A stretch of DNA of 64,000 bases, taken from positions 62,001 through 126,000 of the forward strand of contig NZ_AUBW01000005.1 of assembly GCF_000429445.1 (NCBI RefSeq), given 5' to 3'. Within the stretch, counting starts at the first letter, position 1. Every line of letters starts with the position of its first letter. The stretch comes from Algoriphagus terrigena DSM 22685. Its GTDB lineage: Bacteria; Bacteroidota; Bacteroidia; Cytophagales; Cyclobacteriaceae. Under the pieces are notes generated by a model, which ran no database searches, was not told where the DNA came from, and saw nothing but the letters and a program-made list of their open reading frames with translations. Shown piece by piece: positions 162-20,835 of the stretch. Position numbers and translations under genes: made by a program.

Positions 162-169
162 GGTCGTAT

Positions 170-2173: not shown

Positions 2174-2239
2174 AAGTAATCTTTTGGGGTATATTTCACT
2201 CCGACATATACATCGGATTTTCCTTTAATTACAAATCCC

Positions 2240-3535
2240 TTAACCTTTACCTCCCGAACGAAAAACTGAATCTATCAAACCCGGCATGGTCGGTGATGAA
2301 TCGTCCTTCAGCAAGCCTGTATCCGCCCGGCTAAACAGAGATTGAAGTACCAGCTGCCGGTCTTTCTCGTCTATCTTTTTGTCATTCACCAAAGACAAAT
2401 ACACATAGGTAAGCTGATGCCGCTCTTCGGCATCTCGTTTTAGATGGTAGGTGCTATAAGCAAGTTTTGACAGGGTCTTGATACCAAATGCCAGAAAGGA
2501 GATAAAAGTGACATAGACAATCGTCCACTTGATTGCACTGGCCTCACCCTTAAAAATATTTAGAAGCATCCCATCTGGAATCTGCCATAGCAAAATAAAA
2601 AGTGATACTGCTCCTATTCCAATCAACGTGTAAAGAAGCTTCAAATAACTCTTCCCCTCAACGCCTAATTCATCAGCTCTATCTTTCCAATACTTTGCTG
2701 GCTCTTTAAGAAAAAATATTTCATTATAAGTTTTTTCAAGTTCCTTTCTTCTTGTATCCATTGAATCTGACAAACCCCTAAACTCCTTCGTGGACTTATC
2801 AAACCATTCTTTAAAAAGGTCTTCCTTATTTTTTTTCAGTTCATCGATTTGAGTTGAAAATTCATCTGACTTCGTCTTTGATTTAGCCAGATGATCTAAT
2901 AATACTTTTTGAGATTGATCAATTGCATCCTCTATTTGTAGGGACAATTTTGATAAAGTTCCTTTCTCAGCGGGAGGTCTGGAAATCTTGGATCCTCCGT
3001 CTAATGAGAATTCATAAGCCTTAAGTGCTCCTGCAAACCCTTGCTTATCCTTTGGAATTTCCTGACCTGTAAAATAATAAAATGCCCCCTGTAACATTCC
3101 GGGAAAGATCTTGTTGAGTTCAACCAGAAACTTGGTCTCAGGACTGTCAAAGTTCAAAAGATTTCCAATTTCCCTTTGGTATCTATTTCCAACGCTCGGC
3201 CAGGAATGCGCTAATTGGTTCTTGGTAGAATGGTTATTTCTGACAAATTCCAGAAGTTCCTTTTTTAAGCCCGAAAAATAATCTTTGGACCAGTTGAGAA
3301 CACTGGGCAATTCTTTCCCAATAGAATTGAAACCTTTAATTTGCTTCTCAACAAATTCAAAAATTGATAACAACCCCTTCTTTTTGACTGTCCCCAAGGA
3401 ACATCGGAATGGGAAAGAATATTCCACATTTTCATACCAATCCTTTGATGGGGATGCAAGTACAAACTCTCTAATGTCTTTAATTTCCATAATGGACTGG
3501 TTTGATTGAATAGTTATATGCCGTCGAAAAAACAT
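2240..3535 (-). CDS. Membrane-anchored coiled-coil protein (DUF6161-like)
   Basis: The 431-residue protein has a globular N-terminal half, then a Lys/Glu-rich coiled coil at about 205-265. Two hydrophobic segments follow at about 298-318 ('LIGIGAVSLFILLW') and 332-352 ('WTIVYVTFISFLAFGI'), and the C-terminus is predicted to be cytoplasmic. This layout recalls the DUF6161 family, which has no established function; that assignment is from memory. It precedes the NERD-helicase in the same direction and diverges from the restriction operon. A membrane effector paired with a nucleic-acid sensor is a plausible but unproven reading. Its start codon overlaps the stop of a 39-codon frame upstream. Confidence 0.7.
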   Translation of the reverse strand: MFFRRHITIQSNQSIMEIKDIREFVLASPSKDWYENVEYSFPFRCSLGTVKKKGLLSIFEFVEKQIKGFNSIGKELPSVLNWSKDYFSGLKKELLEFVRNNHSTKNQLAHSWPSVGNRYQREIGNLLNFDSPETKFLVELNKIFPGMLQGAFYYFTGQEIPKDKQGFAGALKAYEFSLDGGSKISRPPAEKGTLSKLSLQIEDAIDQSQKVLLDHLAKSKTKSDEFSTQIDELKKNKEDLFKEWFDKSTKEFRGLSDSMDTRRKELEKTYNEIFFLKEPAKYWKDRADELGVEGKSYLKLLYTLIGIGAVSLFILLWQIPDGMLLNIFKGEASAIKWTIVYVTFISFLAFGIKTLSKLAYSTYHLKRDAEERHQLTYVYLSLVNDKKIDEKDRQLVLQSLFSRADTGLLKDDSSPTMPGLIDSVFRSGGKG

Positions 3536-3654
3536 TAAAGGACAAGAACTTCATTCCAGCCTCTCCCGACAACCCCGCCCCCGCCCAGCACCAACTTGTC
3601 CTTGAGGGCTAATTCCAAAATCTTCTCAAATAGATTGTCCTGATCCGGTGGCAT
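3535..3654 (-). CDS. 39-residue ORF, translationally coupled leader or gene remnant
   Basis: A short frame starts 'MPPDQDNLFEKILELALKD' and ends at a TAA that overlaps the ATG of the membrane protein gene (TAATG). That arrangement usually indicates translational coupling. The C-terminal half is Gly/Val-rich (LGGGGVVGRGWNE). It could be a true small protein, a leader peptide, or the surviving end of a larger gene. No homologue is recognised. Confidence 0.35.
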   Translation of the reverse strand: MPPDQDNLFEKILELALKDKLVLGGGGVVGRGWNEVLVL

Positions 3655-3818
3655 TCAAAAATTGAGCTTATGAAAAATGTATTTCATGCTAATTATAAGA
3701 ATTTTTACATCTCTCTTCCAACGAATTCCCTAATTTTCATAGAAATGGCTTTTCCTGCTTCACGGGTTTTCTATATATTCCCCTTCCAAACCCCTGTTCC
3801 GAATAACCCCAATATCCG
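3655..3818. promoter_or_regulatory. Divergent intergenic control region of the two defence operons
   Basis: These 164 AT-rich bases separate the minus-strand NERD-helicase operon from the plus-strand type III restriction operon. They must hold both promoters. I could not identify a confident -33/-7 pair or operator. Confidence 0.4.
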
Positions 3819-5777
3819 ATGTCTGACAAACTCGACCTTCAAAGTCCCGATCTGGTCAACCAAAATATAGAGAAACTTGCCGCACTTTTTCCTAACTGTG
3901 TCACCGAAGATCCTGAAGGCAAGTCAATCGACTTCGACCTGCTTCGTCAAGAGCTAAACCATCAAGTAGTAGAGGGAACAAAAGAGCGCTATCGCCTGGA
4001 GTGGCCGGGAAAAAAGGAAGCCATCGTCACTGCCAACCTACCCACTACCAAAACCCTCCGACCGGTACGGGAAGACTCGGTGGACTTCGATACGACAGAG
4101 AACCTCTATATCGAGGGAGACAACCTGGAAGTTCTCAAACTGTTGCAGGAATCCTACCTGGGCAAGATCAAAATGATCTACATAGATCCACCCTACAATA
4201 CAGGAAAAGACTTTGTCTATAAGGATAATTTCTCAAAAGATGCTCAGGAGGAACTACTCGAAAGTGGGCAAAAAGATGAATACAACCAACGCTTAGTGGC
4301 TAATCCTGAAACTTCAGGGAGATATCATTCTGATTGGCTAAGTATGATGTATCCAAGGTTAAAGCTGGCAAGAAATTTATTGACTGAGGATGGGTATTTT
4401 ACTATAAGTATAGATGATTCTGAGTATTCAAATTTAAAATCTCTTCTCGATCAGATATACGGCGAAATCAATTACATCGGAACTTTGGTGTTTGACAAAA
4501 ACAGGAAAAATGATGCTCGATATTTTTCAATTGGCCATGAATACATGATTGTTTATGCAAGACAAAAAAGTAAACTGGATGAAAAAGGAACAATACTAAG
4601 AGAGGAAAAAGAAGGGATAGACGATGCAAAAACTTTTTTTAGAAATCTCAGAGATAAACATTTAGATAATTGGCATGAAATTGAAAAAGAATGGAGGCAG
4701 TATTTCAGGAAACTTGACAAAAACTCTGAGGCAAAAAAAATCGGAAGATATTCAAAAATCGAAAGTGAAAGAGGTCCATTCAGAGACGACGGAAATATTT
4801 CATGGCCCGGTGGAAATGGACCAAAGTATGAGGTCATTCACCCTTTAACAAAGAAAAAATGTAAAATACCTGATGGCGGTTGGAGATATTCAAAGCCTGA
4901 GAAGTTTTGGGAAGAAGTAGAGAATGGAAATGTAGGCTTTGGGCCAGATGAATTAACCCTACCTCGTCAAATCAGATATCTATTTGAAGGAGACGGACAG
5001 GTGATGACTTCAGTATCTTTTAGTTATGCCCAAACAGCCACTATGGACTTATTCTCACTAATGGGCTCAAAAGTTTTTGAAAACCCAAAGAACTACAAAG
5101 ATTTAAAGCGAATATTCAAATATTGTAACTTAAAAGATGATGATATAGTCTTGGATTTTTTTTCTGGCTCTGCAACCTCTGCGCACGCATTGTTGGATTT
5201 GAATTCTTTTGACAACGGAAACAGGAAATATATTCAAGTTCAATTACCTGAACTATTAGATGAAAAAAGTGATACCTACAAAGCTGGCTATAAAACCATT
5301 TGTGATATAGGTAAGGAACGAATCAGACGAGCAGCCAAGAAAATCAAGGAAGAAACAGAAGCAGATATCGATTATGGATTCCGGGTATATCGCCTTGATA
5401 AGAGTAATATGCAAGATGTGTACTACCGCCCTCAAGATGTACAGCAGGGTACCTTGGATATGTTTGCGGACCATATCAAGCCTGATCGTACTGCCGATGA
5501 CCTCTTGGTCCAAGTGATGTTGGACTGGGGCCTTCCGCTATCCCTGAAGATCGAGCAGAAATCGGTGGCCGGAAAGAAGGTCTTCCAAGTCGCAGGAAAC
5601 TCCCTGATGGCCTGCTTCGACTCGGGTATCGATGAGGCCTTTGCGAAGGAAATCGCCACGGACAAACCCCTGCGAATCGTCTTCCGCGATGCCTCCTTCC
5701 GCAGCGACACCGCCAAGGAAAACGTCAAACAACTACTCAAACAACTCAGTCCGGAAACGGAGATGAAGGTTATCTGA
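3819..5777 (+). CDS. mod: Type III restriction-modification DNA methyltransferase (Mod)
   Basis: This is a beta-class N6-adenine methyltransferase: the catalytic motif IV 'DPPYNTG' (residues 123-129) precedes the SAM-binding motif I 'DFFSGSAT' (near 446), with the target-recognition region between them. It methylates one strand of an asymmetric site and confers specificity on the Res partner. The 652-residue length is typical. It is the first gene of a six-gene operon, and its stop is one base before the next ATG. The central part (about 4,270-5,390) is clearly more AT-rich than both ends, which suggests the recognition domain was swapped by recombination. Confidence 0.92.
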   Translation: MSDKLDLQSPDLVNQNIEKLAALFPNCVTEDPEGKSIDFDLLRQELNHQVVEGTKERYRLEWPGKKEAIVTANLPTTKTLRPVREDSVDFDTTENLYIEGDNLEVLKLLQESYLGKIKMIYIDPPYNTGKDFVYKDNFSKDAQEELLESGQKDEYNQRLVANPETSGRYHSDWLSMMYPRLKLARNLLTEDGYFTISIDDSEYSNLKSLLDQIYGEINYIGTLVFDKNRKNDARYFSIGHEYMIVYARQKSKLDEKGTILREEKEGIDDAKTFFRNLRDKHLDNWHEIEKEWRQYFRKLDKNSEAKKIGRYSKIESERGPFRDDGNISWPGGNGPKYEVIHPLTKKKCKIPDGGWRYSKPEKFWEEVENGNVGFGPDELTLPRQIRYLFEGDGQVMTSVSFSYAQTATMDLFSLMGSKVFENPKNYKDLKRIFKYCNLKDDDIVLDFFSGSATSAHALLDLNSFDNGNRKYIQVQLPELLDEKSDTYKAGYKTICDIGKERIRRAAKKIKEETEADIDYGFRVYRLDKSNMQDVYYRPQDVQQGTLDMFADHIKPDRTADDLLVQVMLDWGLPLSLKIEQKSVAGKKVFQVAGNSLMACFDSGIDEAFAKEIATDKPLRIVFRDASFRSDTAKENVKQLLKQLSPETEMKVI

Positions 5778-5778
5778 T

Positions 5779-7377
5779 ATGGCCCTACCGGTAAATATCG
5801 AAGAGCTGGTGCATGGAAACACCATCGAATGGGAACGACTCGAGTTCAAGCAAGGCTGGAACCCGGAGGATACCATCCATTCCATGTGTGCCTTTGCCAA
5901 TGACCTGCATAATTGGGGAGGGGGATATATCATTGTTGGAATAGGAGAAAGAGAAGGACAACCCATTCTCCCTCCAGCAGGACTGCCACAAAATCAATTG
6001 GACACCATCCAGGGAGAAATCATTCGACTGGCTGTCAACATCCAGCCCAACTATTTTCCGATCACCCAACCTTATGTATTGGATGGCCAGCATATCTTGG
6101 TCATTTGGTGTCCAGGGGGCGACAATCGACCCTATTCTGCTCCCCGTACTTTAGGGGAAAAAGGTCAGAGACACTATTATGTGCGGATCGGATCACGAAG
6201 CATTGCAGCCCAAGGAGACACCCTAAGAAGGCTATTGGAATTGACTGCCCGCATACCTTTTGATGATCGGGTAAATAATCGGGCAAGACTCGATGATTTA
6301 GACTTCGGATTAATCCGTGAATACCTGCAGGAAATACGAAGCGAATTATTGGAAGAAAGCATATATATGCCGTTTCCGGATGTATGCAAGGCCATGCTGA
6401 TTGCCAAAGGGCCCAGCGAAGACCTCCGGCCAGTCAATGTAGGGTTACTGTTTTTTTGCAAGCATCCGGAGCGTTTTTTTGAAAGAGCCTGGATTGAGTT
6501 GGTCTGGCATAGAGATGATTCCGGTAAAAACTTCCGGGAGGCCACGTTCAAAGGACCTTTGCATGAGCAGCTTAGAGATGCACTATCTTTTATTAAGAGC
6601 TATATCCTATCTGAGCAAGTGATCAAGCATGCTGATCAAGCTGAATCGGAACGGTTTTTCAACTATCCATTTGGAGCCATTGAAGAAGCCTTGTCCAATG
6701 CGGTTTATCATAAAAGCTATGAGCACGGTGCTCCCATAGAGATCCAGATCTTTCCAGACAGCATGACGATTTTGAGTCATCCAGGTCCTGTTCCTCCAGT
6801 GAATGCTCAGGTTCTTTCTACCCAAAAGAGAATCATAGCCCGGGAGTATAGAAACAGGAGAATCGGTGATTTTCTGAAGGATCTCAAACTTACCGAAGGT
6901 CGGGGTACTGGTTTTCCCACGATCTACAACGCTATGGAACGAAACGGTTCTCCCAGTCCCACTTTCGAAACGGACGAACAAACCTATGTGCTGGTCACAC
7001 TTCCTGCGAGACGTCTCGAAAGTAACACAGCCAGTATCGGAGCTAAAGTACCTTTATTCAATATTATTGAGGATGTTATTGAATATGGTAACGGAGTTGG
7101 TATCGGAGTAAGTAACGGAGCTCGGGATGGAGTTTCGATCATAAATGATTCAGTTCATGATCGGGTTAAGGAGATGCTTATGCTGTTGCTGGAAAAGAAA
7201 AAGCGCGCAGAACTTTTTAGGCGTATGGGATTGAGTAATCAAACCAAGAATAGAGAAAGGTATTTGGACCCTTTGATCTATTTTGGCTGGGTGCAGAAAG
7301 AGCATGAAGAAGACACGCATCCCGGTCAAAGGTATTTTACCAGTGAAAGCGGCAAGAGAATTTTAGAACTGATGTAG
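5779..7377 (+). CDS. AlbA_2 (Schlafen-like) DNA-binding protein with GHKL-type ATPase domain
   Basis: The N-terminal AlbA_2 domain (about 15-150) carries 'EFKQGW' and 'GGGYIIVGIGER'. A Bergerat-fold ATPase follows, with N-box 'EEALSNAVYH' near residue 300 and a glycine box 'GRGTGFPTI' near 375. A winged-helix-like C-terminus spans about 455-530. This is the family annotated as 'ATP-binding protein' or 'RNA-binding/AAA_4', often treated as transcriptional regulators. It lies between mod and res, with one base before and none after, so it is produced with them. It may regulate the operon or be part of the restriction machinery; the sequence alone does not decide. Confidence 0.85.
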   Translation: MALPVNIEELVHGNTIEWERLEFKQGWNPEDTIHSMCAFANDLHNWGGGYIIVGIGEREGQPILPPAGLPQNQLDTIQGEIIRLAVNIQPNYFPITQPYVLDGQHILVIWCPGGDNRPYSAPRTLGEKGQRHYYVRIGSRSIAAQGDTLRRLLELTARIPFDDRVNNRARLDDLDFGLIREYLQEIRSELLEESIYMPFPDVCKAMLIAKGPSEDLRPVNVGLLFFCKHPERFFERAWIELVWHRDDSGKNFREATFKGPLHEQLRDALSFIKSYILSEQVIKHADQAESERFFNYPFGAIEEALSNAVYHKSYEHGAPIEIQIFPDSMTILSHPGPVPPVNAQVLSTQKRIIAREYRNRRIGDFLKDLKLTEGRGTGFPTIYNAMERNGSPSPTFETDEQTYVLVTLPARRLESNTASIGAKVPLFNIIEDVIEYGNGVGIGVSNGARDGVSIINDSVHDRVKEMLMLLLEKKKRAELFRRMGLSNQTKNRERYLDPLIYFGWVQKEHEEDTHPGQRYFTSESGKRILELM

Positions 7378-10300
7378 ATGAAACTCCAATTCAAAGAACA
7401 ATTTTTCCAGCTGCAGGCTGTTAAGTCAGTAGTCGATGTATTTCAGGGACAGGCCTTGAAATCCAATACCTTCACCTTGGAGCGAAGTAAGGAACTGATC
7501 CGAAAAGCCAAGGAAGCTGCCTTGGGTACTAAAGGCATTGAGTTTGAAAATGACTTGATGGAAGATATTGGCTACCGAAACGCTACCATCCAAATCGGTC
7601 CGGATGTGATCTTGGATAATATTCAGGAAATCCAGAGAAAAGACAATCTTATGGAAATCCCGCAGCTCCAAAAGCCAAAAAGCAATTTGGGCTACAATCT
7701 GACTATCGAGATGGAGACTGGTACCGGTAAAACCTATACCTATATCCGAACCATGTATGAGCTCAACAAGCATTATGGCTGGAGCAAATTCATCGTTATC
7801 GTTCCATCTATCGCAATTCGGGAAGGGGTATACAAAACTTTCCAAATCACACAGGATCACTTTCAGGAGCTCTATGGGCACCGCATCGCCCCATTTATTT
7901 ACAATTCCTCCAGACCCCAGGACATTGAGAATTTCGCTTCGGATTCAAGGATCTCGGTGATGATTATCAATACCCAGGCTTTCAACGCCCGTGGGGCCGA
8001 TTCCCGAAGAATCTACATGGAACTGGATCAGTTTGGCAGCAGGAAGCCGATTGAAATCATCTCCCAGACGAATCCTATCCTGATCATTGATGAACCTCAG
8101 TCTGTAGAAGGAGAAAAGACCCTGGACAGCATGCAGGATTTTAACCCCTTGTTTACACTCCGATACTCTGCCACGCACAAAAACGAATACAACAAGATCT
8201 ATCGCTTGGATGCTTTGGATGCATACAACCAAAAGCTCGTCAAGAAAATCCAGGTTAAAGGCATCAATATCAAGGGTTCCACTGGGACAACTGGTTATCT
8301 CTACTTGGAGCAGATTCAGCTCAGTACTTCCAAGCCTCCCCGGGCAGTGGTCGAATGGGAACTCCGATCTGCCAGCGGTCAAGTCAAACGGAAAAGACAA
8401 GCTCTCGACAAAGGGGGCAATTTCTTTGATCTATCTGATGGCATGCCTCAGTACAAGAACTGGATTTTGACCGATATCGATGGATACCGAAATCAGATTA
8501 CGGTTAATGGAATGATCCTACAGGCTGGTGAAGCGGTGGGAGATTTAGATGAGAAGACGTTCCGCAGGATTCAAATTCGGGAGACTATTCAGTCCCACCT
8601 GCAAAAGGAAAAAGTCCTGTTCAAGAAAGGTATTAAAGTCCTTTCACTTTTCTTCATTGACTCGGTGGACAAATACCGGGTGTATGACAAGGACGGAAAT
8701 GAGGAACTGGGGGAATATGTCAAGATTTTCGAAGAGGAATACAACCTGCAACGAAGCGAGTTCCTGGATCTTTTCAATGAGGAATACAACACCTATCTGC
8801 AGGAAACAGATCCTGGAAAGGTCAGGGCCTATATGCCCACGGATTACCTGGACTATCTCAATCGAGACGATGCCAGCAAGGTTCACAATGGATACTTCTC
8901 GATCGACAAGAAAAAGAAAATGGTCGATCCATCGGTAAAAAGAGGTTCAGACGAATCAGATGATATATCCGCCTATGACTTGATCATGAAGGATAAAGAG
9001 CGATTGTTGAGCTTTGAAGAACCTACGCGCTTTATCTTTTCCCACTCTGCTTTGAAAGAAGGCTGGGACAATCCCAACGTATTCCAGATCTGTGCGCTCA
9101 AGCAGTCCGACTCAACAGTCAGAAGAAGACAGGAAGTGGGCCGAGGGATGCGACTCTGTGTCAATGATCACGGGATTCGGCAGGATTTTGAGACGGTGGG
9201 TGATGAAGTCCACGAACTGAATAAACTTACCGTGATTGCTTCTGAGGCATATGAGAAATTCGCCAAAGGGCTTCAGGATGAAATTGCTGCTACACTAAAG
9301 GATCGGCCTGTTAAAGCAGACGAACGATTCCTGATCGGAAAACTCATCACAGACGGCAAAGGCCTTCAAGTCCGCATTAATGATGATCAAGCACGAAAGA
9401 TTAACCGGCTACTCTACAAGGCGGACATTTTGGATGAAAATGATTCCATAACTACCATAGGCCGAGAAAAAATAGAAGCCAGTCAGATTCCTGTTCCGGA
9501 AGAACTGATTCCCTTCAAGGAGGACATCGTGAAACTGCTGAAGTCAGTGTACAGCAGCGAAGTGATGAAGCCGGAGAATGACCGGGGAATGGTGACTGTA
9601 GCTGTGAACAAGAACTATTACCGGGAAGAGTTCCGGGCACTATGGAACAAAATCAATATAAAGAGCATCTATGAGGTCCAGTTTGACTCCGAAAAGCTAA
9701 TCAGAGATTCCAAAATCCGGATCAACAAAGACCTGTACATCTCAGACCGGATATATGAAGTCAAGACTGGGGAATTCAAGGGTGGAGAAAAAGCTGATGT
9801 CGAATCAAATTCGGCATTCACTGATACCAACAGAACACATGGAAAAATTCGGGAAGATATCTACACCAATGCCACCTATGATTTGGTAGGAGAACTGGTT
9901 CAGCAGACCAATCTGACTCGAAGAACCATAGTGGAAATTCTGAAAGCCATCGAGTCTAACAAGTTTGCTATGTTCAGGAAGAATCCTGAAGAGTTTATCA
10001 TGAAGTGCGGTTCCCTGATCAACGAAGTCAAGGCAAGCCTGATCATTCACAACATTGTGTACCACAAGACCGACGAGCGATACGATGCCGCGACAGTTTT
10101 CACTAATGACAAGCAGGCATTAAGGCAGTCCGAACAGCTCAAAAAGCATATCTATGACTTCCTGATTTCGGACTCCAAGACCGAGGCAGAGTTTGCCAAG
10201 AACCTGGAACTGAGCACGGCGGTAACCCTTTATGCCAAGCTACCCCAGAGCTTTTACATCACAACTCCAATAGCCCGATTCAGTCCGGACTGGGCTATAG

Positions 10301-10494
10301 TATTTGACAAAGAGCAAACCAAGTACGTGTATTTTGTAGCTGAGACTAAAGGTTCCGAAGCAGAAATGGAGCTCAAGGGTATCGAGCAGCTAAAAATCCA
10401 TTGTGCTGATGAGCACTTCAAAGCCATCTCAGGCGCCGAGGTTAAGTTTGCCAAAGTGGCGAGTTATGAAAGGATGTTGGAGATTATAAATTGA
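7378..10494 (+). CDS. res: Type III restriction enzyme Res subunit (helicase-endonuclease)
   Basis: A DEAD/DEAH-type superfamily 2 motor with Walker A 'METGTGKTYT' (about 111-120), motif II 'DEPQ' (about 238), 'RYSATH' near 264 and motif VI 'QEVGRGMRL' near 587. The C-terminus holds a PD-(D/E)XK nuclease with 'PDWAIVF' near 970 and 'ETKG' near 989. Type III Res uses ATP-driven sliding from two head-to-head unmethylated sites and cleaves when in complex with Mod. The 1,038-residue length is in the family's usual range and all motifs are intact, so it should be active. The ATG follows immediately after the preceding TAG. Confidence 0.92.
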   Translation: MKLQFKEQFFQLQAVKSVVDVFQGQALKSNTFTLERSKELIRKAKEAALGTKGIEFENDLMEDIGYRNATIQIGPDVILDNIQEIQRKDNLMEIPQLQKPKSNLGYNLTIEMETGTGKTYTYIRTMYELNKHYGWSKFIVIVPSIAIREGVYKTFQITQDHFQELYGHRIAPFIYNSSRPQDIENFASDSRISVMIINTQAFNARGADSRRIYMELDQFGSRKPIEIISQTNPILIIDEPQSVEGEKTLDSMQDFNPLFTLRYSATHKNEYNKIYRLDALDAYNQKLVKKIQVKGINIKGSTGTTGYLYLEQIQLSTSKPPRAVVEWELRSASGQVKRKRQALDKGGNFFDLSDGMPQYKNWILTDIDGYRNQITVNGMILQAGEAVGDLDEKTFRRIQIRETIQSHLQKEKVLFKKGIKVLSLFFIDSVDKYRVYDKDGNEELGEYVKIFEEEYNLQRSEFLDLFNEEYNTYLQETDPGKVRAYMPTDYLDYLNRDDASKVHNGYFSIDKKKKMVDPSVKRGSDESDDISAYDLIMKDKERLLSFEEPTRFIFSHSALKEGWDNPNVFQICALKQSDSTVRRRQEVGRGMRLCVNDHGIRQDFETVGDEVHELNKLTVIASEAYEKFAKGLQDEIAATLKDRPVKADERFLIGKLITDGKGLQVRINDDQARKINRLLYKADILDENDSITTIGREKIEASQIPVPEELIPFKEDIVKLLKSVYSSEVMKPENDRGMVTVAVNKNYYREEFRALWNKINIKSIYEVQFDSEKLIRDSKIRINKDLYISDRIYEVKTGEFKGGEKADVESNSAFTDTNRTHGKIREDIYTNATYDLVGELVQQTNLTRRTIVEILKAIESNKFAMFRKNPEEFIMKCGSLINEVKASLIIHNIVYHKTDERYDAATVFTNDKQALRQSEQLKKHIYDFLISDSKTEAEFAKNLELSTAVTLYAKLPQSFYITTPIARFSPDWAIVFDKEQTKYVYFVAETKGSEAEMELKGIEQLKIHCADEHFKAISGAEVKFAKVASYERMLEIIN

Positions 10495-10501
10495 AAAAAA
10501 A

Positions 10502-11593
10502 ATGCAAGCAGGGCATATTAAAGGAGCAATTCTTGAATTCATTATTAGAAACATCTTAAAAAGCTGTGGATTCACTAATGTAGTTGCGGATCCGCCCTAC
10601 ACATTCAAAGATGGTGACTTATTTAAAATAAATGGAAAGGGAGCGGCTCATGATGCAGATGTAATTATGGAACCACCAATTCAAATTCCATTTTCATACC
10701 CAATGAGAATTATTTTTGAATGCAAAGCTTATGCCGACAAAATAAAACTTGAGGTAGTGAGAAATGCCGCAGGCCTGAGAGAAGACATAAATAATTTTGA
10801 AATTGTCACAAAGGATTTTCTTAATCAGAGAATTAGAAAAAAAAGGTCAGAATTTGCTTTTGAAAACAGAAACCGACATTTATATCAAGTTGGAGTAGCA
10901 TCGGTTGGTGAATTTACTAAACCAGCTATTGAATTTGCCGTTAACAATAAAATCCCGTTATTCTCAATAAATGAAAATTTTGATTCATTTACCGCTACTC
11001 AAATCAATTTGATTACCCAAACAATAATCGACTCATTTGATCAAGATGAGATTCAGAATTTATATACTTTTTTAAAAGATAGAGAGGGGGATTTGGATGA
11101 CCCTAAATATCAAAGAGCCTTAAAAGTACTCCAAACAGAAGGTCCTTTAGGAGATATAACTTCAATTTCGGGCTATTTAACAAAAAGAACAAATGTCGGA
11201 ATTCTTAACAATGGACAGATTATTTTCTTATACAGTGTCCAAGATCAAAATCTTCTTTTTGATTCAAACATGAATTTGAAATATAAAGCAGAACTTCATT
11301 GGCATCGTCCTAATTACAATAGTTGGACTTTGGAAGTATTTCCTGAAAATGATGCAACCTCAAAAATCGATTTTAAATTTTTTCTTCCCGCCCAAATATT
11401 AAAAGAATGGGGAGACTCCAATTTCGATAAAGCTAAGGCTCTTGAATTGAAAGGCAATTACTTTTCAAAAATCATGGTATTCAATAAGGGTGGTGATAAT
11501 ATTTTCCCATTATCAATAATCAAGTTAGATGAAAATTGGCTTTCCCGACTGAAAAGTGAATTAAATGAAAATCCAGGTAATGAACCTTATTGA
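10502..11593 (+). CDS. PD-(D/E)XK-like nuclease-fold protein of unknown function
   Basis: The N-terminal 100 residues read as a restriction-endonuclease-like fold: D51/D53 in 'HDADVIMEP', then E73-C-K75 in 'IIFECKAYADK', preceded by a helix and strand. Mrr-like nucleases share this arrangement. The rest (about 110-363) is not recognised. It starts 7 bases after res and overlaps the SNF2 helicase start. Base composition is markedly more AT-rich than the flanking res and helicase genes, so it may have been inserted into the operon later or exchanged with other variants. Nuclease activity is inferred from the motif only. Confidence 0.7.
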   Translation: MQAGHIKGAILEFIIRNILKSCGFTNVVADPPYTFKDGDLFKINGKGAAHDADVIMEPPIQIPFSYPMRIIFECKAYADKIKLEVVRNAAGLREDINNFEIVTKDFLNQRIRKKRSEFAFENRNRHLYQVGVASVGEFTKPAIEFAVNNKIPLFSINENFDSFTATQINLITQTIIDSFDQDEIQNLYTFLKDREGDLDDPKYQRALKVLQTEGPLGDITSISGYLTKRTNVGILNNGQIIFLYSVQDQNLLFDSNMNLKYKAELHWHRPNYNSWTLEVFPENDATSKIDFKFFLPAQILKEWGDSNFDKAKALELKGNYFSKIMVFNKGGDNIFPLSIIKLDENWLSRLKSELNENPGNEPY

Positions 11594-14500
11594 CAACATC
11601 ACCACCCGTCTTGGAGACGATCTGAAGCAGGAAATCAAGCGAGGAAGTAGAATGGCTATTGCTGCCTCCTCATTTTCAATTTATGCCTTTGAGGCACTAA
11701 AGAAAGAGCTTCGGGGAGTTGAGCAATTGAGGTTTATTTTTTCCTCACCGGCATTTGTGGAAGAAAAGTTTCAAAAGCAATCCAGACAGTTTTACATCCC
11801 TCATATCTTCAAGGAAGCTGATCTATGCGGGGGTGATTTTGAACTCAGACTCAAGAATGAATTGACCCAACGTGCCATCGCCAAGGAATGTGCTGCTTGG
11901 GTTAAAGAAAAAGTACAATTCAAGTCGAATATTCAAGTCAACCAGCCGCTCTATGGAATGATCCATTCTGAAGACAAAGAAGGGCAAGGGGTAGCATACA
12001 CGAATATTAACAACTTTACCACCGCTGACCTAGGATTTACGCCAAAGCTGGGTTTCCCCACATTAATTCATAAGATAGCCACGCCAGAAAGCAAGGCCTA
12101 CTTGGACTGGTTCAATCAGGTTTGGAATAATCAGGAAAGCCTTCAAGACGTTACCTCACATGTTCAAGAATACTTTGAAAATGCCTTCAAAGAGAACAGC
12201 CCCGAATTCATCTACTTCATTACCCTTTACAACATCTTTAATGATTTCCTGGATGACATATCCAGTGATTCCTTACCTAATGATCAAATAGGATTTAAAG
12301 ATACTCTGATCTGGAGCAAGCTGTACAATTTCCAAAAAGACGCAGTGATCGGAGCTATTAACAAGCTTGAGAAATATAATGGCTGCATCCTTGCAGATTC
12401 TGTGGGACTTGGAAAAACCTTCTCTGCATTGGGAGTCATGAAATATTATGAACTTCGAAACAAGGATGTGCTGGTACTTTGTCCTAAAAAACTTGAAGCA
12501 AACTGGAATACATACCGAAACAATGACAAGGACAATTTTTTAGCAAAGGACCGATTCCGATATGATGTACTTTTTCATACTGATCTGAGTCGAGATAAGG
12601 GCGAAAGCAATGGAAGAGATCTGGAGCGAGTCAACTGGGGCAATTATGGTCTAGTGGTCATCGATGAGTCACATAACTTCCGAAACAACAACCCAAACAT
12701 TGATAAAGAAAATCGGTATCAAAGACTCCTTAGGAAAATTGTCAAAGAGGGTATTGAGACCAAAGTCTTGATGCTATCTGCAACTCCGGTCAACAACCGA
12801 TTCAATGATTTAAAGAATCAACTTGCCTTAGCCTATGAAGGTAATCCAGGAAAGATTGATGGGAAGCTCGATACTGAAAGAGGAATCGATCAAATCTTCC
12901 GTAGAGCGCAAACTGCCTTTAATACTTGGTCCAGGTTAGATAATGTAGAAAGAACAACCGAAGTCCTCTTAGGCATGCTTGACTTTGATTTTTTTGAAGT
13001 CTTGGACAGCTTGACCATTGCCAGATCAAGAAAACACATTACCACTTATTATGATACCACTGACATTGGAGAATTCCCGGCGAGGAATCAGCCAGAGTCC
13101 ATCCAGGTTCCATTGAGTCAATATGCATCTATTACCTATCGGGAAATTGCGGAGAGTCTGGTAATGCTCAACCTTTCAGTGTATTCGCCGATGAACTACA
13201 TCAAACCAAGCAAAATTCCGTTTTACGAGGAGCGCTATGATCAAAGAGTAGGGACGGGTCGTCTTAGGCAGAAAGACCGTGAAACAAGCTTAAAAGTGCT
13301 CATGCGGATCAATCTTTTGAAACGTCTGGAAAGCTCAGTTGACTCATTCAGAATTACACTTCGGAACATCCGAAATCAAATTCAGTCAGGAATAATAGCA
13401 ATTGAAAAAGGAGATTTATCAGATACCTATTCCGGCATCGAAGCCAATTGGGGTGATGAGGAATTTGATTGGGAATCAGCTTGGGGCGATGAAGAGCAAG
13501 TCTTTGGCAGGAAGGTTAAAATCCATGTCGCTGATATGGATACGAGGAGATGGGGAGAAGACCTCAGAGAAGACCTTGCGGTAATTGATGGCCTCTTGCT
13601 TGAGATTTCTGAAATCAAAGGAAAGAATGACTCTAAGCTTCAAAAACTGAAGCATATCATATCTACCAAAGTAGAGTCCCCATTCAACCCGGGTAATAAA
13701 AAAGTACTTGTCTTCACAGCATTCGCAGATACTGCAAATTACTTGTATGATGAGTTGAAGGATTTCATGTTGGAAAAATTTGAAATCAACACTTCAATCA
13801 TCACCGGTTCAAAAAGAGCTTGTACCTCAAAGAGAATCCCAACAGAATTGAATGCGCTTCTAACCTGCTTCAGTCCCATTTCAAAAAACAAGGAATTGAT
13901 TTATCCTGGTATAAAGGATTCTATAGATCTCATAATCGCCACGGATTGTATATCAGAAGGTCAAAACCTGCAGGATGGTGACTATATGATCAATTATGAC
14001 ATCCACTGGAATCCGGTAAGAATCGTCCAGCGGTTTGGCAGGATAGATCGAATCGGTTCTAAGAATAAGACCATCACCATGGTCAACTTTTGGCCGGATA
14101 TCACCCTGGATTCTTATATCAACCTTAAGCAGCGCGTAGAAAGCAAAATGGCCATAACCAATATGGCCAGCACAGGAGACGATAACTTATTGAGAGTTGA
14201 GGAACAGGAAATGGAGTATCGAAAGATTCAACTTCAAAAGCTCCAGAAGGAAGTGATCGACCTTGAGGATTTGCGTGAAGGCGTCAGTATTACTGACCTT
14301 GGATTAAATGATTTCCGCATTGATTTATCGAACTATATCAAAACCTATGGGGATTTAAAAAGTATTCCTCAGGGGTTACATGCAGTGGCTGCCTCAAAAT
14401 TCAATCTACCTCCAGGTGTGTTCTTTGTTTTGAAAAACATTAATACAACCGTGAATATCGACAAACTGAACAGGCTCCATCCTTACTACATGGTTTATAT

Positions 14501-14810
14501 TTCCCAGGACGGTCAAGTTATACACAACCATGTTGACGCTAAGAAGAATTTGGACGACTTCCGAGCCTTAGCTAAAGGATTAAACACTCCTGACAAGAAA
14601 CTATGCGATCAACTTGCGATCGAGACGGAAGATTACCGGGAAATGGCCAACTATTCCAATTTGCTCAAAAAGGCGATTGGCTCAATTCTAAAAAGCGAAG
14701 AGGAAAAAGATGTATTAAGCCTGTTTAGAGCTGGTGGCACCACTGCGTTGGTTGAAAAAATCAAAGGCATTGAGGATTTTGCGTTAATTTCATTTTTGAT
14801 TGTGAAGTAG
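11580..14810 (+). CDS. SNF2-type helicase with degenerate phospholipase-D-like N-terminus
   Basis: I chose the second in-frame ATG (MNLIDNITTRLG) because family N-termini align there; the upstream alternative is 11,565. The first ~190 residues match the PLD-like module that precedes such helicases, but a clear HxK..D motif is missing. The motor has Walker A 'ADSVGLGKTFSA' near 272, 'DESHNFRN' near 361, 'LSATPVNNR' near 400 and 'QRFGRIDRIGS' near 816. Relatives translocate on double-stranded DNA and occur in DISARM-like and other defence islands. The start overlaps the preceding gene, and the stop is one base before the DUF4391 gene. Confidence 0.85.
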   Translation: MNLIDNITTRLGDDLKQEIKRGSRMAIAASSFSIYAFEALKKELRGVEQLRFIFSSPAFVEEKFQKQSRQFYIPHIFKEADLCGGDFELRLKNELTQRAIAKECAAWVKEKVQFKSNIQVNQPLYGMIHSEDKEGQGVAYTNINNFTTADLGFTPKLGFPTLIHKIATPESKAYLDWFNQVWNNQESLQDVTSHVQEYFENAFKENSPEFIYFITLYNIFNDFLDDISSDSLPNDQIGFKDTLIWSKLYNFQKDAVIGAINKLEKYNGCILADSVGLGKTFSALGVMKYYELRNKDVLVLCPKKLEANWNTYRNNDKDNFLAKDRFRYDVLFHTDLSRDKGESNGRDLERVNWGNYGLVVIDESHNFRNNNPNIDKENRYQRLLRKIVKEGIETKVLMLSATPVNNRFNDLKNQLALAYEGNPGKIDGKLDTERGIDQIFRRAQTAFNTWSRLDNVERTTEVLLGMLDFDFFEVLDSLTIARSRKHITTYYDTTDIGEFPARNQPESIQVPLSQYASITYREIAESLVMLNLSVYSPMNYIKPSKIPFYEERYDQRVGTGRLRQKDRETSLKVLMRINLLKRLESSVDSFRITLRNIRNQIQSGIIAIEKGDLSDTYSGIEANWGDEEFDWESAWGDEEQVFGRKVKIHVADMDTRRWGEDLREDLAVIDGLLLEISEIKGKNDSKLQKLKHIISTKVESPFNPGNKKVLVFTAFADTANYLYDELKDFMLEKFEINTSIITGSKRACTSKRIPTELNALLTCFSPISKNKELIYPGIKDSIDLIIATDCISEGQNLQDGDYMINYDIHWNPVRIVQRFGRIDRIGSKNKTITMVNFWPDITLDSYINLKQRVESKMAITNMASTGDDNLLRVEEQEMEYRKIQLQKLQKEVIDLEDLREGVSITDLGLNDFRIDLSNYIKTYGDLKSIPQGLHAVAASKFNLPPGVFFVLKNINTTVNIDKLNRLHPYYMVYISQDGQVIHNHVDAKKNLDDFRALAKGLNTPDKKLCDQLAIETEDYREMANYSNLLKKAIGSILKSEEEKDVLSLFRAGGTTALVEKIKGIEDFALISFLIVK

Positions 14811-14811
14811 A

Positions 14812-15456
14812 ATGACTCCGATCAGTCAACTACCCAAGCCAACCCAAGTTAACAAGGTAATCCCCAAAAATGCCTTTGATTCTTACTGTACTGCCCAACA
14901 GAAAAGACTCTTTACTGAAAAGGTTGAGAAAATCAGATGGACGAATAAATTGGCCTGGGAAACCATCAACTTACCGTCAGTTCAAATAAAAGAAATCCAA
15001 TGCTTTGAAATCGACCTCAGAGATCGAGAAGGAATTGATGAGGTTTTGAAGATTATAGATCGTGCAATCCCCTACCCGATTCTTTTTAGTCTTTCATTTG
15101 GGACTTTCATGAAAAGGCTAATCTCTCAAAAACACCCTCACCCTACCAATGAGGATAATGCCGTGGTTGACTGGACTTTTGAGTCTCCCTGGACAGCAGA
15201 GCCCATTGAAATCCATTTTGATTTGAGAGAGAATTTAGATGAGGTTTTCCGGAGGCTATGTTTAGCGGTATCAGGGGAGAATGAGCTTCAAATGGGAATT
15301 GATCAGCTGGTCACATTCAAAAAAGAATCACAGGACTTAGAAAGCAAGATTCAAAAGATCAAATCCCGAATTGCAAATGAGAAGCAATTCAATCGAAGGG
15401 TTGAATTGAATCTGGAATTGCAAACTCTTGAAAGAAGGTTAAAGTATTTGGTTTGA
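14812..15456 (+). CDS. DUF4391 domain protein
   Basis: The 214-residue protein opens with 'TQVNKVIPKNAFDSY', typical of DUF4391. The C-terminus (about 160-214) is a charged coiled coil. The family has no established biochemical role but is repeatedly found directly after PLD-SNF2 helicases and near type III restriction genes, as here. It is the last gene of the operon, one base after the helicase stop and about 40 bases before a strong terminator. A structural partner of the helicase is my best guess. Confidence 0.8.
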   Translation: MTPISQLPKPTQVNKVIPKNAFDSYCTAQQKRLFTEKVEKIRWTNKLAWETINLPSVQIKEIQCFEIDLRDREGIDEVLKIIDRAIPYPILFSLSFGTFMKRLISQKHPHPTNEDNAVVDWTFESPWTAEPIEIHFDLRENLDEVFRRLCLAVSGENELQMGIDQLVTFKKESQDLESKIQKIKSRIANEKQFNRRVELNLELQTLERRLKYLV

Positions 15457-15495
15457 ATAACTGAACAACGAAATGCAGAAAACATTTTCCCAGCC

Positions 15496-15522
15496 AAAAA
15501 AAAAGCCCCGAAGGGCTTTTTT
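15496..15522. terminator. Bidirectional rho-independent terminator after the restriction operon
   Basis: Arms AAAAAAGCCC and GGGCTTTTTT enclose a CGAA loop, with T-runs on both strands. It ends the plus-strand operon and also ends the truncated minus-strand gene copy. The same stem recurs at 16,728 as part of a duplication. Confidence 0.8.
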
Positions 15523-15716
15523 CAAGATTCATCCGAATCCTGTTCTTTGACAGAAACGTAAACCGTGTGGGTTTTTCCGTACTGATCAGGTTCTTTTAGC
15601 TTGGCGACATTGAACTTGACGAAGGTTTCTCCTTCATACTCGAAGGTGTGGTTTTGAAGCTCGGCCATGTTCAGGCTCACTTCTACGATGTCCATGTTTT
15701 CGACTTGCTTTCCTTT
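15522..15716 (-). pseudogene. 5'-truncated duplicate of the 71-residue ICE gene
   Basis: The minus strand encodes a near-identical copy of the small protein at 16,753-16,968, for example 'VEVSLNMAELQNHTFEYEG' and 'YGKTHTVYVSVKE', ending ...EQDSDES. Homology stops abruptly at 15,716, where the first ~12 codons should be. An internal ATG at 15,693-15,695 could still give a product of about 57 residues. The duplication includes the terminator. It marks the junction between defence cargo and ICE backbone. Confidence 0.8.
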
Positions 15717-15851
15717 ACGGGCCCACTACTACAGAACTAAAAATCGGATACTTTGGGTCTGTAAAATTTGCAAAGGCAAAGGACCTTTCTCTAGCAAATT
15801 AACTAGATCAAATTTGACCCTAATGGATCTTCAAAAGAAATTAGATACTTT
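15717..15851. other. Junction sequence without a recognisable gene
   Basis: These bases follow the truncated gene copy. On the plus strand an open stretch ends in 'CKICKGKGPFSSK...KLDTF', possibly the tail of a lost gene. It lacks its own start and overlaps the pseudogene, so I do not call a gene. Confidence 0.3.
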
Positions 15852-16442
15852 TTAAAAATATGCTTTAACTGTCGTTTTTATAGCTCTGTTGTATACTGAA
15901 TTGGAAATTTCGCTTATGTTAGCGAATCCATGTTCATAAATTAATTGTATCTGCAAGGTTTTTGAAGGGCTATACCCTAGACCAAAAACTCCTGCAATGT
16001 CGGTGTCTTTCCACAATGCCTTTGCTTCGGCTCCTTTTACTGTAATTTTAGTATCTCCTTCTCCGAAAATCATTGCAGAGGATAAAAGAAATGACGGCTG
16101 GGGTCCTCCAATAATACTGAACCGCTCTCCCAGTTGAAAATCAAAAAGTAAAGGAATATCTAAATAGCCATTTCTCACCAATGAATTAACATTGTCTAAA
16201 TTCGTCTTAGCACCCTTAGTTGCAAAGTCAACACCAGGTTCAAAACGAATAGCACTTGAAATTGGAAGGGATGTAAAGGCACCCAACGAAAATCCGTTTC
16301 GGAAATTGGTGTCCTTCCCTCCAGAATCTTCTCCTTCAAAAGTGGTTATTGAAAATCCCAACCTGAATCCGTATTTAACATCTTGAGCATTGATGGACGT
16401 TGTAAATGCAAATGCGAGTACAAAAAAGAGAATCCTTAACAT
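15852..16442 (-). CDS. Outer-membrane beta-barrel protein (PorT/OprF-like porin family)
   Basis: A signal peptide 'MLRILFFVLAFAFTTSINAQ' is followed by alternating strand-like segments with glycine/aromatic ends, such as 'YGFRLGFSITTF', 'FEPGVDFATKG' and 'AGVFGLGYSPSKTLQIQLIYEHG', and a C-terminal phenylalanine (KAYF). The length of 196 residues fits small Bacteroidetes outer-membrane beta-barrel proteins. Its exact role is unknown. It sits between the two copies of the 71-residue gene, so it is probably ICE cargo that arrived with the restriction island. Confidence 0.75.
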   Translation of the reverse strand: MLRILFFVLAFAFTTSINAQDVKYGFRLGFSITTFEGEDSGGKDTNFRNGFSLGAFTSLPISSAIRFEPGVDFATKGAKTNLDNVNSLVRNGYLDIPLLFDFQLGERFSIIGGPQPSFLLSSAMIFGEGDTKITVKGAEAKALWKDTDIAGVFGLGYSPSKTLQIQLIYEHGFANISEISNSVYNRAIKTTVKAYF

Positions 16443-16727
16443 GGTCGTTATATTTAAGTGAATTGAATCAAATGGATTTTGAAATTTTCAACAAAAAAAT
16501 TCTCATTGACAACTGAACAAAATTTAATATTAGTTGAGTTCTCATATTGTCTGATACGATATCCATGAGATTAATGTTTTTCCTTTACTAAGAAATTATT
16601 TTTCATGAAATTAATAGTTGTTGGTTCTATACCTTTTGTATCTCCACGTAATTTGGGCCATTAGCTAGTTTGATTCCGTTCTGACAACTTATTTGCACCA
16701 ACAGAGAAAAAATAAACAATTATAAAG

Positions 16728-16747
16728 AAGCCCCGAAGGGCTTTTTT
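16728..16747. terminator. Rho-independent terminator of the 71-residue gene
   Basis: Stem AAGCCC/GGGCTT with CGAA loop sits just downstream of the minus-strand 71-residue gene. The long T-run lies on the plus strand, while the minus-strand tail is weak. It is duplicated at 15,499-15,522. Confidence 0.6.
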
Positions 16748-16752
16748 CAAGA

Positions 16753-16968
16753 TTATTCTGAATCCGATTCTTTGACGGAAACGTAAACCGTGTGGGTTTT
16801 TCCGTACTGATCAGGTTCTTTTAGCTTGGCGACATTGAACTTGACGAAGGTTTCTCCTTCATATTCGAAGGTGTGGTTTTGAAGCTCGGCCATATTCAGG
16901 CTCACTTCTACGATGTTGCTATTTTCGACTTGCTTTCCTTTTCCGATGTACTTTTTTGAGAATGCCAT
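16753..16968 (-). CDS. Conserved small ICE protein, 71 residues
   Basis: Intact copy beginning 'MAFSKKYIGKGKQVENSN' and ending 'TVYVSVKESDSE'. It is short, soluble and strand-rich, and acidic at the end. No function is recognised; its low divergence from the truncated copy suggests selection. It lies alone between a terminator and a 308-base spacer. Confidence 0.7.
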   Translation of the reverse strand: MAFSKKYIGKGKQVENSNIVEVSLNMAELQNHTFEYEGETFVKFNVAKLKEPDQYGKTHTVYVSVKESDSE

Positions 16969-17276
16969 AGTATTTTGGTTTTAGTTAAAATTTATGCAGG
17001 TCATTTAGGATAGCCGGGAAAGTGAGAAAAAATTAGAATTTAAAAACTGGGAGGTAGTCCGTAGGAGACCCTGTTTTTAGAAAATTCTGCTGGAAGCCTC
17101 AATTTTTTGAAACTGACAGGCTGTCCGACCTTTGTGCATACAATTGGATAAAACCGGAATAGGGCTTCGTTTACTCGGTTCGTATAGCTAGGAAAACTAC
17201 AATTAGGAAGTCGATTGCCATCATATATTCAAGCCAGCCGACGGATGAAATCTTCTGTTCTGGACGAGAGCGGAAA
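16969..17276. other. Intergenic spacer, 308 bases
   Basis: Contains the promoter side of the 71-residue gene. I see no tRNA, clear repeat or open frame with a start that resembles a gene. The stretch near 17,140-17,275 is unusually GC-rich for an intergenic spacer and may be a decayed gene, but I cannot identify it. Confidence 0.3.
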
Positions 17277-17603
17277 CTACATCAGTTTACCAAAATCACT
17301 GAACGAATTCTCTCTTAACAGTTCTTTCACCTTCCCTTTTCTAACCTTGTTGGCTTCAATTTGCTCAAAGGACAGCAAAAGCTTCATCAACATAAATCTC
17401 AGGTCCTTATCGGTTAGATCAATTCCGTTCTGCCGAAACGACTCCTCTATAAAGGATTTGGCATTGTAAGGATATACCACTTGACCTTTGAAAGCTGCGT
17501 CTGCCGGGTGTACCACTTCATTATACATGTTCATCAGAACTATTCCGTCATCAGCCTTGTCAAGTAGGTTCAAGGCATTTTCTACTACTTTTTTGATACT
17601 CAT
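17277..17603 (-). CDS. Hypothetical ICE protein, 108 residues
   Basis: Predicted soluble and mostly helical protein ('MSIKKVVENALNLLDKADDG', 'LRFMLMKLLLSFEQIEANKV'). No domain is recognised. It is followed by a spacer and lies in the same direction as the transfer operon, so an accessory conjugation or maintenance role is possible. Confidence 0.55.
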   Translation of the reverse strand: MSIKKVVENALNLLDKADDGIVLMNMYNEVVHPADAAFKGQVVYPYNAKSFIEESFRQNGIDLTDKDLRFMLMKLLLSFEQIEANKVRKGKVKELLRENSFSDFGKLM

Positions 17604-17666
17604 TGGGTGTGTTAAGTTTCTGATTTAAAAATAGGCAAATGTTCGAGATAAGGAGCTTTCCCCTGC

Positions 17667-18486: not shown

Positions 18487-18513
18487 TTGGGATTTCTCAA
18501 AACATCTATCAGA

Positions 18514-19239: not shown

Positions 19240-19258
19240 ACATAGCAAAATCAAATTA

Positions 19259-20825: not shown

Positions 20826-20835
20826 GTTGTTTGCT

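What the first reader, a model, noticed from the sequence alone, without database searches (positions are those of the whole stretch)
3819..15456. Type III restriction operon with four extra subunits
Mod and Res are separated by an AlbA_2-GHKL ATPase and followed by a PD-(D/E)XK-like protein, a PLD/SNF2 helicase and DUF4391. All six genes are co-directional with 7 bases or less between them, two overlapping. This packing suggests one machine, not neighbours by chance. Known: Mod-Res alone make type III restriction, and SNF2 helicases with DUF4391 recur in islands. The joint function is not something I know to be described.
Basis: partly seen in the sequence, partly recalled or inferred. Interest (0 to 1): 0.72.

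Follow-up and report, generated by a model that had tools for sequence, protein, structure and literature searches.

The report
Type III restriction with extra motor
A bacterial anti-virus gene cluster pairs a classic two-part DNA-cutting system with a second DNA motor and a small linker-like protein that travel with it across many bacterial groups, while the other two genes in the cluster look like swappable passengers.

Summary
The six packed genes are real, but not one six-part machine. Four are a conserved core: type III Mod and Res, a SNF2 helicase with a PLD-like N-terminal domain, and DUF4391. Of the best 80 of at least 589 genome relatives of the helicase, 73 loci are not cut by a contig end and 72 of these hold all four. 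The other two look like exchangeable cargo: the AlbA_2/GHKL gene sits in the Mod-Res joint, filled in 43 of 93 joints by varied families, and no relative of the Mrr-like gene was found in the related loci. L073 is a bare core. The helicase's HKD nuclease motif is absent beside type III partners (0 of 104; viral contigs 0 of 55) but intact in a sister branch (8 of 8; 5 of 5) whose Eco57I-type methyltransferase has a DUF4391-like N-terminal domain. So DUF4391 looks like a methyltransferase-side adaptor for a nuclease-dead motor. Murray et al. 2021 reported an extra ATPase beside some type III systems; the one at the probable Eco86II locus is another lineage. Mechanism inferred.

The parts
3819..5777 (+). 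mod: type III beta-class DNA methyltransferase (652 aa), core gene
   Evidence: PDLC03634 762 bits over the full length; 280 bits to EcoP15I Mod 4zcf; DPPY at 123 and DFFSGSAT at 446
5779..7377 (+). AlbA_2 (Schlafen-type) + HATPase_c_4 (GHKL) protein (532 aa), exchangeable cargo in the Mod-Res joint
   Evidence: Pfam hits over cut-off; both families match 21 of 56 Mod-Res inserts scanned, this one included; joint empty or differently filled in close relatives
7378..10494 (+). res: type III restriction subunit, SF2 motor + PD-(D/E)XK nuclease (1038 aa), core gene
   Evidence: PDLC03647 961 bits; 210 bits to EcoP15I Res 4zcf; GTGKT, IIDEP, PDW...ETK present
10502..11593 (+). Mrr-like PD-(D/E)XK protein (363 aa), exchangeable cargo in the Res-helicase joint
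   Evidence: Mrr_cat E 5e-4, just under its cut-off; D...ECK motif; profile hit only itself in the loci then held; 0 of 96 other related genomes; other ORFs fill this joint in 7 of the other 11 loci that have it
11565..14810 (+). SNF2 helicase with PLD-like N-terminal domain lacking the HKD residues (1081 aa; likely true start 11580), core gene
   Evidence: C3a139 HKD+Snf2 418 bits; SNF2 motifs present, no HxK; HKD columns changed
14812..15456 (+). DUF4391 protein (214 aa), core gene, proposed adaptor
   Evidence: PF14335 E 2e-46; AlphaFold2 model pLDDT 95.2; directly follows the helicase in most loci

Best explanation
This is an extended type III restriction-modification system. Its core is Mod + Res + a SNF2 motor + DUF4391; two passenger genes sit in the operon's joints. 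Proposed working: Mod2Res1 recognises and methylates an asymmetric site as in EcoP15I, and Res cuts unmethylated DNA (by family). DUF4391 binds the methyltransferase side and docks the SNF2 motor onto it (inferred from the sister branch, where a DUF4391-like domain is fused to the methyltransferase). The motor no longer cuts: its PLD nuclease motif is gone, probably because Res supplies the nuclease (loss shown at sequence level; reason inferred). The motor most likely moves along or remodels DNA, clearing bound proteins or bringing distant or badly oriented sites together, so that Res can act on phage DNA that plain type III enzymes miss (inferred). The AlbA_2/GHKL protein and the Mrr-like nuclease are exchangeable back-up effectors, perhaps held silent by the R-M complex as PrrC is by EcoprrI (inferred by analogy).
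For: Core conservation: 72 of 73 uncut loci among the best 80; also on plasmids and E. coli chromosomes opened and on viral contigs. Res tree (quick method): the window's clade is 46 module-bearing rows plus 3 contig-cut rows and no module-less row. Starting from Res in Pseudomonadota: 13 Res hits of this type, one of them the centre genome G296 that was chosen for having the set; of the other 12, 7 have the helicase on the same contig, 1 is split over two contigs, 1 has DUF4391 next to Mod with the helicase side cut off, 1 lacks both, 2 are cut. Co-divergence: helicase-Res r 0.93 (n 76), helicase-DUF4391 r 0.88 (n 92). HKD absent with type III, present with Eco57I-type partners: 0 of 104 against 8 of 8, and 0 of 55 against 5 of 5; PLDc_2 over its cut-off in 5 of 5 sister helicases scanned, not reported for P0005. 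DUF4391 link to the methyltransferase N-terminus: Pfam E 2e-6, 7e-5 and 9e-5, all under the gathering score; sister-domain HMM against 165 DUF4391 proteins best E 1e-6, best reversed control 0.023; profile-profile E 1.6e-4; matching run of strands and helices in two models. Cargo turnover.
Against: No experiment shows any role for this helicase or DUF4391. Murray et al. 2021 found that a different extra ATPase was not needed for methylation and was not detected in the cutting preparation of Eco86II; if that holds here, the motor is not needed for basic cleavage in vitro. The DUF4391-methyltransferase homology is weak in sequence: hhalign probability 50%; only 6 of 165 DUF4391 proteins match the sister HMM under E 0.001, all from the second type III clade, and the window's protein is not among the 25 best. 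No structural superposition could be run, and the elements before the shared run differ between the two models. G381 keeps this Res type with no helicase found in its genome at E 1e-50, and G405 and G558 show no helicase either. In the permuted order DUF4391 is not next to Mod. AlbA_2 distances also follow the core (r 0.89 with the helicase, n 19), so in some lineages it may be more than a passenger. The correlations do not remove host relatedness.
Confidence: 0.6

Rival explanations
1. One six-subunit machine: all six proteins are needed together.
For: Tight packing and overlap; AlbA_2 family in 21 of 56 Mod-Res inserts scanned; AlbA distances follow the core.
Against: No relative of P0004 in the related loci then held; L073 is Mod-Res-helicase-DUF4391 with gaps of 3, 4 and -1 bases and no cargo; L080 has a different AlbA and no P0004-slot ORF.
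Confidence: 0.06
2. Two independent defence units that travel together: a plain type III system and a separate helicase-DUF4391 unit.
For: Many type III systems lack the pair; a helicase of this family sits beside another kind of methyltransferase in the sister branch.
Against: Among the 73 uncut loci of the best 80 none showed the pair without a methyltransferase gene or fragment; Res and helicase distances correlate at 0.93; the helicase lacks its own nuclease motif where Res or Mod is present.
Confidence: 0.12
3. Helicase and DUF4391 act on modification or control rather than on restriction, for instance helping Mod to keep newly replicated sites methylated or holding Res off until methylation is complete.
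For: The DUF4391-like domain is fused to the methyltransferase in the sister branch; mobile systems need such control, and relatives lie on plasmids and viral contigs, the window's copy on an apparent conjugative element.
Against: Sister-branch helicases keep a nuclease motif, which points to restriction; Mod alone methylated in E. coli in the Eco86II and BspHIV cases.
Confidence: 0.18

Closest known systems
Type III R-M, EcoP15I (Mod2Res1)
   Same: Mod and Res match EcoP15I chains (Mod nearly full length, Res over 68-601 by phmmer) and have the catalytic motifs
   Different: Two more conserved core genes, helicase and DUF4391, and variable cargo genes
Type III systems with an extra ATPase, Eco86II and BspHIV (Murray et al. 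2021, PMC8259958, whole text read)
   Same: Type III Mod and Res with a helicase-like ATPase gene 5' of mod, role unknown, said to be close together in more than 500 genomes
   Different: At the locus I take to be Eco86II the helicase is DrmD-like (663 bits) and shares mainly motor motifs with P0005 (best segment 64 bits); no DUF4391 gene is annotated there; Res shows no significant BLASTP similarity. BspHIV was not examined
Type-2 BR / Hma-type systems (PMC12839542, passages read)
   Same: N-terminal HKD on a SNF2 helicase working with a DNA methyltransferase and a small alpha+beta protein (DUF3780)
   Different: Those centre on a DUF499 ATPase; neither DUF499 nor DUF3780 was hit in the six window genes, where instead Res is present and the HKD motif is lost
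DISARM (DrmD)
   Same: SNF2 helicase beside a methyltransferase
   Different: P0005 scores 146 bits against NCBIfam DrmD, cut-off 610; Drm models shown for the six proteins are weak matches to the motor of P0005
EcoprrI-PrrC, a toxin gene inside an R-M operon (PMC12707154, passages read)
   Same: A defence gene embedded in an R-M operon
   Different: Here the joints lie in a type III operon and hold many families; silencing by the R-M complex is not shown

Membership tests
Type III restriction-modification | beta-class Mod with DPPY and AdoMet motifs, related to EcoP15I Mod | tested here: met
Type III restriction-modification | Res with SF2 motor and C-terminal PD-(D/E)XK nuclease | tested here: met
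Type III restriction-modification | system made of mod and res only | tested here: not met
   helicase and DUF4391 are conserved partners
Type III restriction-modification | asymmetric site, one-strand methylation, cleavage with two inverted sites | not testable with these tools
   needs methylome and cleavage assays
Murray 2021 extra-ATPase group | extra helicase of the Eco86II lineage | tested here: not met
   against the locus taken to be Eco86II; BspHIV not tested
Murray 2021 extra-ATPase group | m4C methylation | not testable with these tools
   sequence alone does not settle m4C against m6A
HKD (PLD) nucleases | HxK and GSxN catalytic signature | tested here: not met
   no HxK anywhere in P0005
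DISARM | DrmD at the family cut-off | tested here: not met
   146 bits, cut-off 610
Hma / DUF499-centred BR systems | DUF499 ATPase | tested here: not met
   no such Pfam hit in the six genes
DUF4391 (PF14335) | hit over the Pfam cut-off | tested here: met
   159 bits, cut-off 29.9

The most novel reading that the evidence does not exclude
DUF4391 is an unrecognised methyltransferase-docking module that lets one family of SNF2 motors plug into two unrelated R-M chassis. With Eco57I-type methyltransferases it is fused to the enzyme and the motor carries the nuclease. With type III Mod-Res it became a separate protein and the motor lost its nuclease, giving a two-motor restriction complex whose joints hold exchangeable back-up defence genes.
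Probability: 0.42. Interest if true: 0.75.

Novelty: new variant of a known kind. Interest (0 to 1): 0.6.

Why it matters
Type III R-M is usually described as a two-gene system. Here a multi-phylum clade of it nearly always carries a second motor without its nuclease and a small protein of unknown function. A role for DUF4391 (a name found in one paper of the library) becomes testable, and the nuclease loss gives a sharp evolutionary prediction about division of labour between two motors. The operon joints also seem to act as docking sites for defence genes, so new effectors can be looked for there.

Tried and rejected
Six-gene machine: rejected because cargo genes turn over while the core stays. 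Identity with the Murray 2021 extra ATPase: tested on the SNF2-Mod-Res set of the NCTC86EC record and rejected on helicase type and absence of an annotated DUF4391 gene; I read three stretches of that record, not the whole. DUF4391 as a nuclease: by eye, no D..ExK-like set among the positions conserved at 75% or more in 69 aligned sequences. Known fold for DUF4391: Foldseek against PDB gave no match at E 0.001 or better for the DUF4391 model or the sister domain; sequence search of PDB gave nothing of use. DISARM, BREX and Hma membership: not met. Mobility by flanking repeats: the only direct repeat of 40 nt or more found in 1-20000 flanks a beta-barrel gene, not the operon. Promoter and terminator scans were no better than shuffled controls. 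A paper search on the MADS system gave unrelated papers.

Corrections on recount. One search printed 61 canonical and 11 permuted loci; L133 was called permuted only because of a 140-aa Mod fragment upstream, its order is canonical, so I count 62 and 10. One search printed 71 of 80 with all four; six-frame search found DUF4391 in L112, so 72. Seven loci are cut by contig ends (L074, L077, L089, L103, L134, L138, L140); L110 keeps a Mod fragment and no Res.

Rows dropped or counted apart: for HKD, L038 (type III) and L161 (Eco57I) had no readable N-terminus; 9 rows of unknown partner and L151 (partner cut off, HKD intact) were left out, 15 loci with no visible partner (none with HKD among the 14 readable) and 1 unreadable type III row were left out. 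The HKD test reads alignment columns; one type III row has K in the K column, none has H. Sets hold near-duplicates. In the Res tree every second full-length Res of the 80 loci was used; 7 rows were labelled contig-cut. L035 inserts were left out of the Pfam scans. In viral contigs L276 has helicase then Res with no Mod or DUF4391 seen, and L295 and L299 showed no DUF4391 hit.
Full report
OBSERVATION. The six ORFs and their spacing are as described. Translations and family scans give Mod, AlbA_2+HATPase_c_4, Res, a weak Mrr_cat protein, a SNF2 helicase whose best PADLOC match is 'HKD+Snf2', and DUF4391. The motor and catalytic motifs looked for are present except HxK of the PLD domain. The window is part of a 5.78 Mb, 57-contig genome that has one DUF4391 hit and one RE_endonuc hit.

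THE CORE IS FOUR GENES. With profiles made from the session's own sequences, 76 of 80 had DUF4391, 73 Mod, 73 Res, 71 all three; six-frame search added DUF4391 in L112, so 72 of 80, or 72 of the 73 not cut by a contig end. By record titles these loci come from Bacteroidetes, Proteobacteria, Firmicutes, Acidobacteria, Planctomycetota, Campylobacteraceae, Akkermansiaceae and others; a Mycolicibacterium plasmid adds Actinomycetota. Of the 72, 62 have the order helicase-DUF4391-Mod-Res; 10 have Mod and Res upstream of helicase-DUF4391, eight of them in the window's order Mod-Res-helicase-DUF4391 and two (L076, L078) with Res before Mod; 9 of the 10 are Bacteroidota by title. Eight plasmid loci were opened: seven carry annotation, and profiles or names give all four genes in each of the eight, the DUF4391 of L059 being annotated 'hypothetical' and L058 being unannotated; in L055 mod is interrupted by an IS1-like transposase gene. 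In E. coli, 68 of 5426 complete genomes have some match to a plasmid helicase, 10 over at least 80% of it; three such loci opened show the four genes. Of 76 loci on viral contigs, 56 have Mod or Res beside the helicase, 5 an Eco57I-type partner and 15 neither, several of these cut by contig ends.

IS IT OBLIGATE? The loci above were chosen by helicase, so I also started from Res. In 296 Bacteroidota genomes the RE_endonuc family matches 70. In 40 stretches taken around such hits, chosen because one search gave no helicase of this kind beside them (a few are ends of broken contigs), profiles found no helicase or DUF4391. On a quick-method tree of 87 Res proteins the window's clade holds 46 module-bearing and 3 contig-cut rows and none without the module; another clade mixes 5 module-bearing, 5 module-less and 1 contig-cut rows, and one of the module-less (L053) keeps what looks by eye like a helicase fragment. 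In 349 Pseudomonadota genomes, 13 Res hits score at or above 774 bits, the next 613. One is the centre G296, chosen for having the set. Of the other 12, seven have the helicase on the same contig, G302 has the set split over two contigs, G558:C326 has DUF4391 beside Mod at a contig start, G381 shows neither on its 10 kb Mod side (its Res side is cut), and G405 and G558:C56 are cut; no helicase was found at E 1e-50 in G381, G405 or G558. So the pair is nearly, not strictly, obligate in this Res type. Helicase distances follow Res (r 0.93, n 76), DUF4391 (0.88, n 92) and Mod less well (0.73, n 87), as expected if Mod swaps recognition domains; host relatedness was not removed, and AlbA_2 also follows (0.89, n 19).

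TWO GENES ARE CARGO. Joints between core genes hold ORFs of at least 120 aa in 43 of 93 Mod-Res joints, 23 of 84 DUF4391-Mod, 8 of 12 Res-helicase and 6 of 100 helicase-DUF4391 (mechanical ORFs). Of 56 Mod-Res inserts scanned, the window's included, 21 match AlbA_2 and 21 HATPase_c_4, 7 YhcG/DUF1016, 4 RhuM, 3 Fic, 2 DUF4276, with others such as Abi_2, zeta toxin and PIN once each (first 25 of 29 families shown). Of 45 inserts in other joints scanned, P0004 included, 6 match 23S_rRNA_IVP, 3 GmrSD_N, 3 AlbA_2, 2 AAA_13 and 2 Mrr_cat, one of these at E 2e-19 in another locus's insert (first 25 of 35 shown). In the window's close kin Res and helicase are 57-83% identical, yet L080 has another AlbA (31%), L070 a similar one (70%), L069, L071, L072 and L073 none, and L073 has no cargo at all. 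L047 holds a 126-aa ORF that starts like P0002 beside a different AlbA gene, perhaps a scar of replacement.

THE MOTOR LOST ITS NUCLEASE MOTIF. In the N-terminal domain H and K of HxK are never both present in helicases whose locus has Mod or Res (0 of 104 readable), but are in all 8 readable ones with an Eco57I-type partner. Viral contigs repeat this, 0 of 55 against 5 of 5. Fisher p is 2e-12 and 2e-7, though rows are related and not independent. Partner type was called by profile or by similarity to L051 and L052; Pfam Eco57I itself was checked in L051, L052 and L275. PLDc_2 passes its cut-off in 5 of 5 sister helicases scanned and is not reported for P0005 or the E. coli plasmid helicase.

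WHAT DUF4391 MAY BE. The sister helicases are followed, directly or after one gene, by a large Eco57I-type methyltransferase. Its N-terminal part matches DUF4391 in Pfam at E 2e-6, 7e-5 and 9e-5 for three proteins, below the gathering score. An HMM of the sister domain finds 6 of 165 DUF4391 proteins under E 0.001 (best 1e-6, all from the second type III clade), against a best reversed-sequence control of 0.023; the window's protein is not among the 25 best. hhalign gives E 1.6e-4 with probability 50% over 73 columns. The AlphaFold2 model of the window protein (pLDDT 95.2) and of the sister domain (pLDDT 77.1, five sequences) share a run of elements: strand 11, helix 4, strand 9, helix 11 or 12, strand 7, strand 11, strand 8 or 13, then helices; the elements before it differ. 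Neither finds a PDB match at E 0.001. I therefore read DUF4391 as a methyltransferase-associated adaptor; binding is not shown.

PRIOR WORK. Murray et al. 2021 (PMC8259958, whole text) describe an extra ATPase 5' of mod in BspHIV and Eco86II, close to mod and res in more than 500 genomes, of unknown role, not needed for methylation and not seen in the Eco86II preparation. On the NCTC86EC record I found one SNF2-Mod-Res set near nanM, nanC and fimB, which I take to be Eco86II because the paper reports one type III system in that strain with this gene order; its helicase is DrmD-like and no DUF4391 gene is annotated. [quoted passage not shown] Passages of PMC12707154 describe PrrC. The passages shown of PMC12458937 and PMC2292703 do not describe this set. 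Searches (listings and abstracts) showed no paper that describes helicase-DUF4391-Mod-Res as a system; most subscription papers are outside that library. PADLOC 2023 gave no hit for the two DUF4391 proteins scanned.

VERDICT. The mechanism beyond sequence is inference.

Noticed in passing
window 19899-36679 and 50203-51703: Conjugation genes (T4SS coupling protein, TraM, TraG, relaxase) and a tyrosine integrase next to tRNA-Met suggest that the operon rides on an integrative conjugative element; its ends were not mapped.
   Followed up: partly
window 15499-15716 and 16724-16941: A 218-nt direct repeat at 94% identity flanks an outer-membrane beta-barrel gene just downstream of the operon.
   Followed up: no
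window 170-3535: Divergent neighbours upstream: a NERD-UvrD-like helicase and a DUF6161 protein.
   Followed up: no
L051 4972-13281, L052 1-7570, L275 8114-15985: Sister system: HKD-SNF2 helicase with intact motif followed by a DUF4391-like::Eco57I methyltransferase, with a DUF1016/YhcG nuclease gene between them in L051 and a gene of similar size in L052 (not scanned); it seems to be an R-M-like system of its own.
   Followed up: partly
L068 20031-29448: SNF2 (DrmD-like)-Mod-Res without an annotated DUF4391 on E. coli NCTC86EC, probably Eco86II: apparently an independent recruitment of a SNF2 motor by a different type III lineage.
   Followed up: partly
L047 11037-11417: 126-aa ORF beginning like P0002 beside a different AlbA gene: perhaps a scar of cargo replacement.
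   Followed up: no
L065 9172-9336: The E. coli NCTC11023 copy is preceded by an HTH gene annotated mads1, a name from another methylation-linked defence system.
   Followed up: no
L276 5858-12114: A viral contig with helicase directly followed by Res and no Mod or DUF4391 seen.
   Followed up: no
L055 12680-15497: On the Acinetobacter plasmid mod is interrupted by an IS1-like transposase gene.
   Followed up: no
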